From the NCBI GenBank assembly GCA_023621995.1, contig JAMOAB010000069.1, positions 1 to 52,996 of the forward strand: DNA of 52,996 nt, written 5' to 3'. Of the stretch, positions 18,118-22,995 are shown piece after piece (the stretch's first letter is position 1; each line of letters starts with the position of its first letter). The position numbers were made by a program, and so were the translations under genes. This stretch comes from Bacillota bacterium. GTDB taxonomy: Bacteria; Bacillota; Clostridia; Caldicoprobacterales; Xylanivirgaceae. The notes under the pieces were generated by a model. It did no database searches. It was not told the DNA's origin and was given only the letters and a program-made list of their open reading frames with translations.

Positions 18118-19755
18118 TTAACCCAATATTGCCTCAAGATCTTCCCTTGCTGTAGATGTTGGCCTTATGCCAAACTCCCTAACTAGTATATCTAGTACAT
18201 TTGGTGATATGAAAGCTGGCAGAGAAGGTCCAAGATGTATATTCTTTATACCTAGGGATAGGAGGGTTAGGAGTATGCACACCGCCTTTTGTTCATACCA
18301 CGACAGTATCATGCTAAGGGGCAATTCATTTACATCACATTCAAAGGCTTCAGCCAGTGCAAGTGCAATCTTTATAGCAGAATATGCGTCGTTACACTGT
18401 CCTACATCTAATAGCCTTGGTAGATCTCCAATTGTACCAAAATCCATCTTGTTGAACCTATATTTACCACATGCAAGTGTAAGTATTATTGTATCATCTG
18501 GTGTAAGTTCTGCAAATTCTGTATAGTAGTCTCTGCCTGGCTTAGCACCATCACATCCGCCTATCAAAAAGAAATGGCTTATGTCTCCACTTTTTACCCC
18601 TTCTATTATCTTATCTGCATGTTTAAGGGTTGCATCATGTCCAAATCCAACTAATATGGTTTTCTCTTCCTCGTCTTCTTCCCAACCTCCAAGTTCAAGT
18701 GCCTTCTCAATTATTGGTGTAAAGTCCTTTACACCATCCTTCTCCTCTATATAGGCAATACCAGGCCAACCGACTATCCCAGTTGTAAATATCCTGTCTT
18801 CGTATGAAGGCCTTGGCTTTTGTATGCAGTTTGTAGTCATCAATATACAGCCAGGTATATTGTCAAATTCCTTCTGTTGATCCTGCCAAGCGCCACCATA
18901 GTTCCCTACTAGGTGGTCGTATTTCTTGAGTTCAGGATACGCATGACAAGGTAGCATCTCGCCATGGGTATATATGTTTATACCTTTTCCTTCAGTCTGC
19001 TCAAGGAGCTGCTTTAAATCCTTAAGATCGTGACCTGATACTATTATAAATGGACCCTTCTTCTTTGTAGTAGCTACTCTTGTAGGCTCCGGCGTTCCAT
19101 ACATACCTGTATTAGCCCTGTCAAGTAGTGCCATACAATCTAGGTTTACCCTGCCAAGCTCTAATACCAAGTCAAGAAGGTCCTCTGCCCCTAAGGTATC
19201 GTCTGTAGTTGCCCTAAGTCCCCTATAGAAGAACTTGTTGACCTCCTTATCGCTAAAGCCTAATACGTAAGCATGGTGGGCATATGCACCCATACCTTTC
19301 ATACCGTATATAAGTAGTTCCCTTAAAGAGCGTATATCTTCGTCTATATCCTCATACATCACACCAGCCATCTTTGCATCAGATAACATCTCGTCTTTTG
19401 TGGCTGGAAGGACGTATAGAGCCGGCGCCGGCGCTTCTGACACCTCACCTACCATTCCCCTTAGCTCATCTTTAACTGTCTGTGCTTCCACTAAAAATTC
19501 TACAAACCTGTCTTCATCAAAGTTTACATTGGTAAGGGTTGAAAATATGGCATCCATTACAAAGCTGTCTATATGCTCAGCAACCTCTCCACCCCTATCT
19601 AGCAGTTCACTGCCGTAAAAACCTATACCCTTTAACTGGTATATGAGTAGATCCTGTAGAGCCGCCACTCTAGAATCTTTACCACATACCCCCATCTTAA
19701 TGCATCCTTCACCTTTAGCAGTCTGTTCACATTGGTAACAAAACATATTTTCCAT
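18118..19755 (-). CDS. hcp: Hybrid-cluster protein (hydroxylamine reductase)
   Basis: 545-residue cytoplasmic metalloprotein holding a [4Fe-4S] and a hybrid Fe-S-O cluster. It reduces NO to N2O, or hydroxylamine to ammonia, and protects anaerobes from nitrosative stress. The N-terminal cysteines C6, C9, C18, C24 (CX2CX8CX5C) are the class I arrangement of strict anaerobes. Hybrid-cluster ligands are seen in the C-terminal half: GHD, MLPCHAYPEL, NCIQKP, GGCDGAKPGRDYY, ACGKYRFNK, GQCNDAYSA. The start has GGAGGAGAG about 5 bases upstream. The ferredoxin-like gene lies 28 bases upstream in the same operon and could supply electrons. A GTAAC-N4-GTTAC site precedes the operon. Confidence 0.96.
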   Translation of the reverse strand: MENMFCYQCEQTAKGEGCIKMGVCGKDSRVAALQDLLIYQLKGIGFYGSELLDRGGEVAEHIDSFVMDAIFSTLTNVNFDEDRFVEFLVEAQTVKDELRGMVGEVSEAPAPALYVLPATKDEMLSDAKMAGVMYEDIDEDIRSLRELLIYGMKGMGAYAHHAYVLGFSDKEVNKFFYRGLRATTDDTLGAEDLLDLVLELGRVNLDCMALLDRANTGMYGTPEPTRVATTKKKGPFIIVSGHDLKDLKQLLEQTEGKGINIYTHGEMLPCHAYPELKKYDHLVGNYGGAWQDQQKEFDNIPGCILMTTNCIQKPRPSYEDRIFTTGIVGWPGIAYIEEKDGVKDFTPIIEKALELGGWEEDEEEKTILVGFGHDATLKHADKIIEGVKSGDISHFFLIGGCDGAKPGRDYYTEFAELTPDDTIILTLACGKYRFNKMDFGTIGDLPRLLDVGQCNDAYSAIKIALALAEAFECDVNELPLSMILSWYEQKAVCILLTLLSLGIKNIHLGPSLPAFISPNVLDILVREFGIRPTSTAREDLEAILG

Positions 19756-19783
19756 AGCTTACTCTCCTCCCATAATTATAATA

Positions 19784-20542
19784 TTAAATACCTCTAGATA
19801 TGATCTCACCCTGGGCACTTATCACTATCTCACTATAGGGAACTATTATGCCAGTATCTAACATGGCTCCCTTTACAGCCCCTACTATTCCACCACAGCA
19901 AGGTACTTCCATCCTAGCCACTGTAACACTCTTTATATCATTGTCTATGAGTATCTCACCTAACTTTTCCCTATAGTAGTTATTATCATCTAGCTTAGGA
20001 CAGCCTATTAAGGTTATCTTGCCTGTCATAAAATCCTCATGAAAATTGCCATAGGCATATGCTGTACAATCGGCTGCTATTAGAATATGGGCATCTTGTA
20101 AGTAAGGAGCCCTTGTATTTATAAGACTTAATTGTACAGGCCATTGGCTGAGCTTTGAATGACTACTAGCTTTTGTATTTTCAGGTTTAGAATCACAGCT
20201 ACACTCCTGCGTAGTATCATGCGTAGTATCATGTCTAAGCTGCCTTGACAAACTCCCTGGACAACCACATGGCATGGCTTTATCTTGACTCTCTTCCTTT
20301 TTTCTCTCCTCAATACGTCTTTTAACCGCCTCTTCATCAAATGGTTTACTCTTCCTCTCTATGATGGATATGGCACCTGTTGGACATTCAGGTAGACAAT
20401 CCCCAAGCCCATCACAATATTCATCAGCTACAAGCCGTGCCTTTCCATCCACAAGTTCTATTGCCCCTTCATGACATGCAGTTATACAAATCCCACAACC
20501 ATTGCATTTATCCTCATCTATATGGACAATCTTTCTTATCAT
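19784..20542 (-). CDS. 4Fe-4S ferredoxin-like protein, Hcp electron-transfer partner
   Basis: 252 residues. The N-terminal ferredoxin domain binds one clear [4Fe-4S] cluster: C13, C16, C19, C23. The second motif reads CDGLGDCLPECP, with C43, C49 and C53 but one cysteine fewer than the usual CX2CX2CX3CP. A cluster there would have an unusual ligand, or borrow one. A charged linker follows (KPFDEEAVKRRIEER), then a cysteine-rich 'CGCPGS' stretch and an alpha/beta domain with ADCTAYAYG, IGCPKLDD and EVPCCGGI. This layout occurs next to hcp in Clostridia. There is no flavin or NADH domain, so it is not the Hcr reductase of enterics. Its role as Hcp donor is inferred from position. Confidence 0.8.
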   Translation of the reverse strand: MIRKIVHIDEDKCNGCGICITACHEGAIELVDGKARLVADEYCDGLGDCLPECPTGAISIIERKSKPFDEEAVKRRIEERKKEESQDKAMPCGCPGSLSRQLRHDTTHDTTQECSCDSKPENTKASSHSKLSQWPVQLSLINTRAPYLQDAHILIAADCTAYAYGNFHEDFMTGKITLIGCPKLDDNNYYREKLGEILIDNDIKSVTVARMEVPCCGGIVGAVKGAMLDTGIIVPYSEIVISAQGEIISRGI

Positions 20543-20593
20543 ATATATCCTCCCCCCTCCATCGTCATATGAAATATATCATGCAAAAGGGCA

Positions 20594-20621
20594 AAAATCG
20601 GTAACATTTGTTACCGATTTT
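20594..20621 (-). terminator. Terminator of nadA
   Basis: Perfect 12-bp stem, AAAATCGGTAAC and GTTACCGATTTT with a 4-base loop, followed by T on the - strand. It starts 15 bases after the nadA stop and overlaps the GTAAC-N4-GTTAC site. Confidence 0.8.
20601..20614. promoter_or_regulatory. Candidate HcpR-type (CRP/FNR family) operator of the hcp operon
   Basis: The inner part of the nadA hairpin is GTAACATTTGTTAC, i.e. GTAAC-N4-GTTAC. From memory, this is the consensus proposed for HcpR in Clostridia. A TATATT box at 20573-20578 (reverse strand) would be its -10, giving a start near 20566. The palindrome centre would then be about 41.5 bases upstream, the classic class II activator position for CRP/FNR proteins. 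The regulator is not in the window. Confidence 0.55.
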
Positions 20622-20635
20622 CATGTTCTCCAATA

Positions 20636-21550
20636 TTAGCTTGTAATACTTAGCATCTTATGGAGGCTATCTGCCGCCTGTTCATATATGTCTTCATCAA
20701 TTTTAATTGGATCCTCTTCCCATAAGAGTGCATTGTATATGCTCTTTAGACTGATCTTTTTCATGTCAGGGCATACAAGTTCATCCGATAACATAAAAAA
20801 TTCTTTATCAGGACAGCTATTCCTAAGCCTATGCAAAACTCCCAATTCTGTACCGATCAGAAACTCTCTGTCATCGGATGCAATTGCATACTGGATGATG
20901 GACTCGGTACCACCTATAAAATCAGCAGCTTCCCTCACATCCGATGTACATTCAGGATGTACTAATACCTTGGCATTTGGTCGTTCCTTCTTTTCCCTGT
21001 ATACATCTTCCAATGTCACAGATGCATGAACCGGGCAATATCCCTCCATCTTTATTATTTCCTTTGTAGATATGTATTTTTCAACATAACTTCCAAGATT
21101 CCTATCTGGAACAAAAATTATTCTATCGGAACTTTGACTATGTACAATATCTATTGCATTTGATGATGTACAACATATGTGGCTCTCTGCCTTTACTTCA
21201 ACATTCGAATTTACATAACATACTACTTTTGCATCACTATACCGTCTTTTAAGCTTTCTCAGATCATTCCTATCTACCATGCCTGCCATTGGACAATTGG
21301 CACTTAGATTTGGAAGTAATACCGTCTTTTGTGGGTTTAAAAGCTTGGCAGTCTCTGCCATAAATCTGACACCACAAAAGACTATTATGTCTTCCTTACT
21401 ATTGATAGCCAATTTGCACAGACTGAGAGAATCACCTACATAATCTGCAATCTCTTGTACTTCTGGCAATTGATAGTTATGGGCTAATATTAAGGCATTC
21501 TTCTGAGATTTTAGCTTGGTAATACTGGAAATAAGGGCATAATCGTCCAA
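20636..21550 (-). CDS. nadA: Quinolinate synthase A
   Basis: 304 residues from the preferred TTG at 21550 (GGAGGGG, 6-base spacer; a TTG at 21565 is also open). It condenses iminoaspartate with dihydroxyacetone phosphate into quinolinate for NAD synthesis, with an oxygen-sensitive [4Fe-4S] cluster. Motifs are ALILAHNYQLPEVQEIADYV, GDSLSL, FCGVRFMAETA, CTSSNA and HPECTSDVREAADFIGGT. The cluster cysteines lie in the FCGV region, the SHICCTSSN stretch and near NSCPDKEF. nadB and nadC, usually beside nadA, are absent from this window. It ends in a hairpin shared with the hcp control region. Confidence 0.95.
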   Translation of the reverse strand: MDDYALISSITKLKSQKNALILAHNYQLPEVQEIADYVGDSLSLCKLAINSKEDIIVFCGVRFMAETAKLLNPQKTVLLPNLSANCPMAGMVDRNDLRKLKRRYSDAKVVCYVNSNVEVKAESHICCTSSNAIDIVHSQSSDRIIFVPDRNLGSYVEKYISTKEIIKMEGYCPVHASVTLEDVYREKKERPNAKVLVHPECTSDVREAADFIGGTESIIQYAIASDDREFLIGTELGVLHRLRNSCPDKEFFMLSDELVCPDMKKISLKSIYNALLWEEDPIKIDEDIYEQAADSLHKMLSITS

Positions 21551-21701
21551 TAATATCCCCTCCAAAGTATTAAAATATGGACATGTACTACAAGGAAAAG
21601 TATATAAAAGTGCATATTAGATAATATGTGTTTTATTCTGTATATATCATAGTATAACATCTAGCAAAGTATTCCACAAGTGAGGGTATTTTTTCAAAAA
21701 T

Positions 21702-21731
21702 AAAAACTCCGCCTACGTAGGCGGAGTTTTT
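21702..21731. terminator. Terminator of the DegT aminotransferase
   Basis: Perfect 30-base inverted repeat, AAAAACTCCGCCTAC with its complement, GC-rich core, T runs on both sides. It lies 14 bases after the aminotransferase stop at 21745. Confidence 0.92.
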
Positions 21732-21744
21732 ATTGGGTGATATG

Positions 21745-22995
21745 TTACTGTCTATTTGCATAATAGTTGGATACTTTTCTTATAGCTGCTATTGTATCTT
21801 TAAGGTCTTGCTCTGTATAGAACTCATTTACATTAATTCTTATAGCTGTCTTGAGTATATCTTCAGCTACAGGACACATACCTGTATAGTACTCTATATC
21901 CTTACCATAGTATTTAGAGTCAAATGGCGAATGGGTACCTAGATAACCTTCTTTGTTCTTGAATAAATCATATTCATATACACAGGTAGGTATATATCCT
22001 GGCTGGTTAGGAATACCTTCTGCACTTAAAGCCTTTGAAAATTCATCCCGGCTCACACCAGCTTTTTCTTCGTCTATTCTAAGCATATAGAACCAGTAGG
22101 AACTCTTATTACCTTCAAGGACCTTATGGGGCATTATACCTGGTAGATCCTTTATTCCCTCTGTTAGGGCATCGCCATATTTATTACGCTGCTCGCAGAT
22201 CCACTCTAATTTGTCAAGCTGTGCAAGGGCAACTGCACCTTGAAGCTCTGTCATCCTATAGTTTGGTGCCAGATATGGTATCTTACGCTCAGCAGCTGGA
22301 TCGGTACTAAATCTATCATAGTTCTTATCGGCAAATTTAAATGCCTTGTAGTATAGATCTTCATCGTCCATTATGATCATACCACCATCGCCGGCTGATA
22401 TGTGCTTAAAGTCGTTGACACTGAAACAACCAATATCACCAATTGTACCTGCCAGCCTACCCTTATAATAGCTCATATAACTTTGGGCACAGTCTTCGAT
22501 TACTTTTATATCGTGTTTTCTTGCAATCTCCATTATGGGATCCATATCTGCAGCATTACCTGCAAGGTGTACAACCACTATTGCCTTTGTCTTATCTGTT
22601 ATCTTCTCCTCTATGGACTTGGGATCCATATTATAGCTATTAGGATCTAGATCGGCAAATACTGGTATGGCGTTTTGATATAGTATACCAATTACAGAAC
22701 CCATATCTGTTATAGGGGAAGTTATTACTTCATCTCCTGCAGTTACACCTACAGCTCCTAGTGCAACGTGTATCCCTGCTGTACCGGATGATGCAGCAAC
22801 ACAATGTTTTGCACCATACATATCTGCAAACTTCTTTGTAAATTCCTTTACCTTATTGCCATACCAATAAAAGAGAGTGTTTTGATCTAACGCCTCTTTT
22901 AAATTTTTAAGTTCTTCATCTCCGAATCTCTTACCTGTTCCCCAATCGGTAGTCTTAGTCTTTGGACCACCAAATAGAGCTAACTCTTCACTCAT
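21745..22995 (-). CDS. DegT/DnrJ/EryC1/StrS family PLP aminotransferase
   Basis: 416 residues from ATG at 22995, which has a GGAGGG site (an upstream in-frame extension to 23067 overlaps the preceding gene and lacks one). Sugar aminotransferase that adds an amino group to a keto-sugar with PLP. Motifs: SSGTAGIHVALGAVGV, EVITSPITDMGSV, DCAQSYMSYYKGR, and the PLP lysine in NDFKHISAGDGGM. The SAGDGG form is found in scyllo-inosose and related 3-keto-sugar aminotransferases. It lies 16 bases after a Gfo/Idh/MocA oxidoreductase, and such dehydrogenase/aminotransferase pairs make amino sugars or amino-cyclitols. The product is not known. Confidence 0.9.
   Translation of the reverse strand: MSEELALFGGPKTKTTDWGTGKRFGDEELKNLKEALDQNTLFYWYGNKVKEFTKKFADMYGAKHCVAASSGTAGIHVALGAVGVTAGDEVITSPITDMGSVIGILYQNAIPVFADLDPNSYNMDPKSIEEKITDKTKAIVVVHLAGNAADMDPIMEIARKHDIKVIEDCAQSYMSYYKGRLAGTIGDIGCFSVNDFKHISAGDGGMIIMDDEDLYYKAFKFADKNYDRFSTDPAAERKIPYLAPNYRMTELQGAVALAQLDKLEWICEQRNKYGDALTEGIKDLPGIMPHKVLEGNKSSYWFYMLRIDEEKAGVSRDEFSKALSAEGIPNQPGYIPTCVYEYDLFKNKEGYLGTHSPFDSKYYGKDIEYYTGMCPVAEDILKTAIRINVNEFYTEQDLKDTIAAIRKVSNYYANRQ

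What the first reader, a model, noticed from the sequence alone, without database searches (positions are those of the whole stretch)
20573..20621. One hairpin may be both the nadA terminator and an HcpR operator
GTAAC-N4-GTTAC matches the clostridial HcpR consensus as I recall it. Its centre is about 41.5 bases from a possible hcp-operon start, the class II activator spot. The same bases form the nadA terminator, so nadA read-through and NO-stress control could interfere.
Basis: partly seen in the sequence, partly recalled or inferred. Interest (0 to 1): 0.6.

Follow-up and report, generated by a model that had tools for sequence, protein, structure and literature searches.

The report
HcpR operator doubling as nadA terminator
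The hairpin just after nadA is almost certainly the DNA switch at which the nitric-oxide regulator HcpR turns on the frdX-hcp defence genes, and the same bases also look like a weak transcription stop for nadA, a double use that seems to recur where this switch abuts the end of another gene.

Summary
Window 20601-20614 is a perfect GTAAC-N4-GTTAC, the published HcpR2 motif (Rodionov 2005, PMC1274295). It is the only intergenic exact copy in the 3.08 Mb genome, and it lies upstream of frdX-hcp. A -10 box (TGATATATT) starts 22 nt downstream, which puts the palindrome centre at -41.5. In 26 independent relatives with the same motif, 23 have the -10 at exactly that spacing, so class II activation is a conserved design. 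The genome encodes an HcpR2-type regulator (recognition helix SRPSLSRE, as in nearly all GTAAC-site owners), unlinked from hcp.

The terminator half is weaker. The hairpin folds well (-16 kcal/mol), but its terminator score is low (3.1; other gene ends up to 40). The CGATTTTT arm and T-run are part of the conserved HcpR promoter, and two operators with no gene to terminate look as good. However, across 150 HcpR-type operators, those abutting the end of a co-directional gene have longer matched arms (genus-collapsed p=0.007 without the window). Three same-genus relatives show this after flgG, one with a strong score (26.8).

Verdict: HcpR operator about 0.93; also a working nadA terminator about 0.5; interference untested. 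The class is known; the double use is a plausible variant.

The parts
20601..20614 (.). HcpR2 operator core, GTAAC-N4-GTTAC palindrome
   Evidence: exact match to the motif of Rodionov 2005; only intergenic exact copy in the genome
20594..20621 (-). extended inverted repeat AAAATCGGTAAC-AAAT-GTTACCGATTTT (12 pairs); hairpin in nadA RNA and putative weak nadA terminator
   Evidence: fold -16 kcal/mol, z -4.8; terminator score 3.1, 17th of 25 candidates in the window
20593..20597 (-). T-run TTTTT after the stem: possible terminator U-tract, and also part of the conserved promoter-proximal CGATTTTT
   Evidence: conservation in 26 relatives
20573..20581 (-). extended -10 element TG-A-TATATT of the frdX-hcp promoter, 22 nt after the operator
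   Evidence: sequence; same spacing in 23 of 26 independent GTAAC sites and 144 of 150 operators (the latter set was selected for spacing 21-23)
20566..20566 (-). predicted transcription start of frdX-hcp (inferred from the -10; not mapped)
   Evidence: inference
19784..20542 (-). frdX, ferredoxin-like protein, first gene of the operon
   Evidence: 4Fe-4S domains; homologues next to hcpR and hcp
18118..19755 (-). hcp, hybrid cluster protein
   Evidence: NF003658 831 bits, TIGR01703 743 bits
20636..21565 (-). nadA, quinolinate synthase, co-directional gene ending just before the operator
   Evidence: NF006878, TIGR00550; PF02445
18072..18105 (-). terminator after hcp (comparison)
   Evidence: score 18.4

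Best explanation
The palindrome is the operator at which the genome's HcpR2-type CRP/FNR regulator (contig C94, locus L002:1153-1854:-) binds as a class II activator and recruits RNA polymerase to an extended -10 promoter that lacks a good -35, switching on frdX-hcp under nitrosative stress. Because the operator sits directly after nadA on the same strand and its flanks have become complementary, the nadA transcript also forms a 12-13 bp hairpin followed by five U's there, which most likely ends part of the nadA transcripts (weak intrinsic terminator). Supported by sequence and comparison: motif, position, regulator, conserved architecture, hairpin. Inferred: binding, activation, NO signal. 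Only plausible (about 0.5): real termination. Speculative: that bound HcpR and nadA transcription hinder each other. The confidence given is for the operator reading with the terminator left open as stated.
For: Exact HcpR2 motif upstream of the expected targets, unique between genes. HcpR2-type regulator in the genome with R180/P181 and helix RPSLSRE; nearly all neighbouring-gene regulators paired with a GTAAC half-site share R-P, with one exception, L173. It groups with HcpR proteins encoded beside frdX, not with the genome's other two CRP/FNR proteins. The -10 is at 22 nt in 23 of 26 independent sites. No sigma-70 -35/-10 pair was found there, as expected of an activator-dependent promoter. 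For the terminator: strong fold; score 3.1, where random sequence gives about 0.1 such hits per 53 kb strand; longer matched arms at operators abutting co-directional genes: genus-collapsed against the other unlinked loci p 0.007, against divergent loci p 0.034, flank permutation p 0.0035, all without the window; flgG cases in one other genus with scores 26.8, 4.6 and -3.7.
Against: hcpR is not next to hcp in this genome. The heme ligands of P. gingivalis HcpR (Met68, His149; PMC12750200) are Lys and Glu here, so the signal is not established. The terminator score is low for this window, where the clearest gene-end terminators reach 17-40, and the T-run is broken by GCCC. Two divergent operators score as high or higher (L204 21.2, L221 5.3), so an extended hairpin can arise without a gene to terminate. 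Leaving out the window and the flgG genus, the arm-matching trend falls to p 0.08. No transcript data.
Confidence: 0.85

Rival explanations
1. Operator only: HcpR activates frdX-hcp here, but the hairpin is a by-product of a symmetric operator, and nadA transcripts mostly read through into frdX-hcp or end by other means.
For: CGA plus T-run next to GTTAC is a conserved promoter feature. TCGGTAAC...GTTACCGA also occurs in divergent promoters (G064; L204 has the same form with GTAGC) and at a cupin-DUF438 operon in a same-family genome. Low terminator score.
Against: The upstream arm AAAATCG departs from the T-rich flank of relatives, and matched extension is specific to loci abutting a co-directional gene.
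Confidence: 0.43
2. Terminator only: an ordinary nadA terminator whose stem matches the HcpR motif by chance.
For: Position right after the nadA stop and the fold.
Against: Perfect 10-of-10 motif, unique between genes, with the conserved -10 spacing, in front of the canonical HcpR target genes, in a genome with HcpR2.
Confidence: 0.02
3. Another CRP/FNR protein of the genome (L001, FNR-like, or L003) binds the site.
For: All three carry CRP-type helix-turn-helix domains.
Against: Their recognition helices (TQETLSR, SRQTVTE) lack the Pro that goes with GTAAC sites; neither groups with the HcpR proteins encoded beside frdX.
Confidence: 0.05

Closest known systems
HcpR2 regulon of Clostridia and Thermotogales (Rodionov 2005, PMC1274295)
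   Same: motif GTAACnnnnGTTAC, regulator with Pro181, targets hcp and frdX
   Different: hcpR unlinked here; operator abuts and is merged with the 3' end region of nadA
C. difficile frdX-hcp / HcpR (PMC12915319)
   Same: same operon and regulator family, shown to matter for NO tolerance
   Different: C. difficile uses GTTGC half-sites and a Ser181 helix (L189); its operator has short arms and no terminator look
DNA uptake signal pairs used as terminators in Neisseria and Pasteurellaceae (PMC1852404)
   Same: a palindrome serving another purpose appears co-opted as an intrinsic terminator
   Different: there the element is a DNA uptake signal, not an activator operator at a downstream promoter

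Membership tests
HcpR2 operator / regulon | palindrome GTAACnnnnGTTAC upstream of hcp or frdX | tested here: met
   20601-20614
HcpR2 operator / regulon | CRP/FNR regulator with Arg180 and Pro181 in the recognition helix | tested here: met
   L002: SRPSLSRE
HcpR2 operator / regulon | regulator groups with hcp-linked HcpR proteins | tested here: met
   PDB neighbours include P. gingivalis HcpR 9day and the CRP-family protein 1o5l
HcpR2 operator / regulon | hcpR next to hcp (usual, not obligatory) | tested here: not met
   hcpR on contig C94, hcp on C56
HcpR2 operator / regulon | NO or nitrite response through heme | tested here: inconclusive
   P. gingivalis ligands Met68/His149 are Lys/Glu in L002 and also differ in nearly all hcp-linked HcpR proteins compared; the response itself is not testable
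Class II CRP/FNR-activated promoter | site centred at about -41.5, no good -35 | tested here: met
   -10 22 nt downstream, conserved in 23 of 26 sites; no -35/-10 pair found; start itself inferred
Intrinsic terminator | GC-containing stem followed by a U-tract | tested here: met
   8 bp TCGGTAAC core stem, TTTTTGCCC tail, score 3.1: weak
Intrinsic terminator | causes termination of nadA transcripts | not testable with these tools
   needs RNA 3' end mapping

The most novel reading that the evidence does not exclude
HcpR operators that land at the end of a co-directional gene are repeatedly co-opted as that gene's intrinsic terminator, so one palindrome is both the activator site of the downstream NO-defence operon and the transcription stop of the upstream gene (nadA here, flgG in another genus), coupling the two.
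Probability: 0.35. Interest if true: 0.55.

Novelty: new variant of a known kind. Interest (0 to 1): 0.38.

Why it matters
It extends a published regulon prediction to a strongly conserved class II geometry: 22 nt from operator to -10 in 23 of 26 unselected GTAAC sites, and in 144 of 150 operators of all types (that larger set was chosen for spacing 21-23). It also gives a testable case of one DNA palindrome doing two transcriptional jobs, with a statistical hint that this recurs.

Tried and rejected
Chance origin of the motif: rejected. Second exact genomic site as a regulatory site: rejected, it is in the adhE coding sequence. Known RNA element (Rfam): none in 19500-22500. The standard terminator scan missed the hairpin, apparently because it counts the A-U pairs as stem, so a scoring script was written. 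Longer arms at co-directional loci as an effect of A-rich gene ends: tested by permuting flanks, not sufficient. As an effect of the hcpR ribosome site in divergent loci: checked against unlinked loci, still significant. Statistical proof of a recognition-helix/base code on a tree: too few independent changes. The G286 case was found with a pattern biased towards long arms, so it is not counted in the final statistics (it was in the small first test). Literature searches for operator/terminator overlap found no direct precedent; the library is incomplete.

Full report
What is there. On the minus strand the order is nadA (21565-20636), a 93 bp gap, frdX (20542-19784) and hcp (19755-18118) (families). 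The gap holds AAAATCGGTAAC-AAAT-GTTACCGATTTTT, then TGATATATT (extended -10), a predicted start at 20566 and a ribosome site. GTAAC-N4-GTTAC occurs once in the window (0.02 expected) and twice in the 3.08 Mb genome; the second copy is inside adhE.

The operator reading. Rodionov et al. 2005 (PMC1274295) derived GTAACnnnnGTTAC for HcpR2 upstream of hcp in Clostridia, Thermotogales and others, and tied it to Pro181 in the recognition helix. The genome has three CRP/FNR proteins. One, L002, has ISRPSLSRE, i.e. Arg180-Pro181. Its homologues in relatives are often encoded next to frdX, divergently, with the site between. Among the aligned HcpR proteins, all those paired with GTAAC sites but one (L173) carry R-P-[SA]-L-S-R; GTTGC sites go with R-S or R-A. 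L002 falls among the hcp-linked HcpR proteins, while the other two CRP/FNR proteins, used as outgroup, stand apart. Solved-structure neighbours include P. gingivalis HcpR (9day) and the CRP-family protein 1o5l; 9day is the entry of PMC12750200.

Geometry. For 26 independent exact sites upstream of frdX (window left out), the hexamer starting 22 nt after the site has a mean of 5.0 of 6 matches to TATAAT, with 23 of 26 at 5 or more; the next best spacing (17 nt) has 9 of 26. In 150 distinct palindromic operators of all half-site types, 144 have the 22 nt spacing; that set was selected for spacing 21-23, so only one search is an unbiased test. The window has 22 nt, i.e. centre at -41.5.

The terminator reading. 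The hairpin folds at -16 kcal/mol (z -4.8). With a d'Aubenton-Carafa-type score it gets 3.1, 17th of 25 candidates in the window; the clearest gene-end hairpins score 17-40. Random sequence gives about 0.1 such hits per 53 kb strand, so it is not noise, but the palindrome is already explained by the operator. The promoter-proximal CGATTTTT is the consensus of HcpR promoters regardless of what lies upstream. In Anaerospora (L204) and in L221, both with divergent hcpR and thus nothing to terminate, the operator looks like a better terminator. Extended TCGGTAAC...GTTACCGA also appears in G064, in G003 of the same family (before a cupin-DUF438 pair) and in G286 (hcpR-site-hcp).

Is the double use more than coincidence? 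I classed 150 operators by what lies upstream: 107 divergent hcpR, 19 with a co-directional gene ending 2-77 nt before the site (13 of them 12 nt or less), 24 other. Arms are longer in the co-directional class: against divergent p 0.005, 0.012 without the window; genus-collapsed 0.015 and 0.034; against the 24 other loci, genus-collapsed, 0.004 and 0.007 without the window. Permuting flanks among loci, which keeps base composition, the matched extension is 2.3 bp observed against 1.1 expected without the window (p 0.0035), absent in the other class (0.70 against 0.78) and small in divergent ones (1.19 against 0.93, p 0.016). Most of the signal comes from the window and one genus in which flgG ends 8 nt before the operator (L144, L335, L345; L335 scores 26.8). 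Without both, p is 0.08. These tests were chosen after seeing the data.

Mechanism and limits. I conclude that HcpR class II activation of frdX-hcp is very likely (0.93), termination of nadA by the same palindrome is about even (0.5), and the proposed interference is untested. If HcpR is bound, RNA polymerase coming from nadA would meet it before the hairpin is made, so HcpR might act as a roadblock; conversely nadA transcription would dislodge HcpR. Both are inference. The signal is also inferred: the heme ligands known from P. gingivalis are not conserved here.

Novelty. Operator, regulator and operon are a known kind. The merged operator-terminator is an unproven variant; co-option of another palindrome as terminator is known for DNA uptake signals (PMC1852404).

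Noticed in passing
(HcpR proteins of L049-L258 loci): Recognition-helix residue 185 tracks the fifth operator base (Arg with C, Ala with A, Asn or Lys with T, Asp with G), and Leu/Met183 seems to track GTAAC versus GTATC/GTAGC. A possible extension of the published two-residue code; too few independent changes to prove.
   Followed up: partly
L144, L335, L345: In one genus flgG (named by eye from the translation) ends 8 nt before a GTTGC-type HcpR operator whose arms are extended; L335 looks like a strong terminator.
   Followed up: yes
L196 and L203 (Clostridium puniceum, C. beijerinckii): nadA, nadB-like and nadC-like genes lie directly upstream of frdX on the same strand, with an HcpR-like site after nadC: a second nad-frdX neighbourhood.
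   Followed up: partly
L266 (G003, same family): An extended HcpR operator precedes a cupin gene and a DUF438-like gene, a candidate extra HcpR target (names from the sequence by eye, not searched).
   Followed up: no
L002: hcpR of this genome is unlinked from hcp and sits between a Gfo/Idh-type oxidoreductase and an F420 ligase-like gene (names by eye).
   Followed up: no
window 18118-19755: The Hcp protein is closer (70%) to two genomes of other families (G064, G053) than to the copies in its own family (50-52%), and the one same-genus genome (87% complete) shows no hcp: possible transfer or differential loss.
   Followed up: no
PDB 7t8o (Listeria Lmo0753): Its recognition helix ITRPSLSRELGRM matches the GTAAC-type HcpR helix, so it may read a GTAAC-like site.
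   Followed up: no
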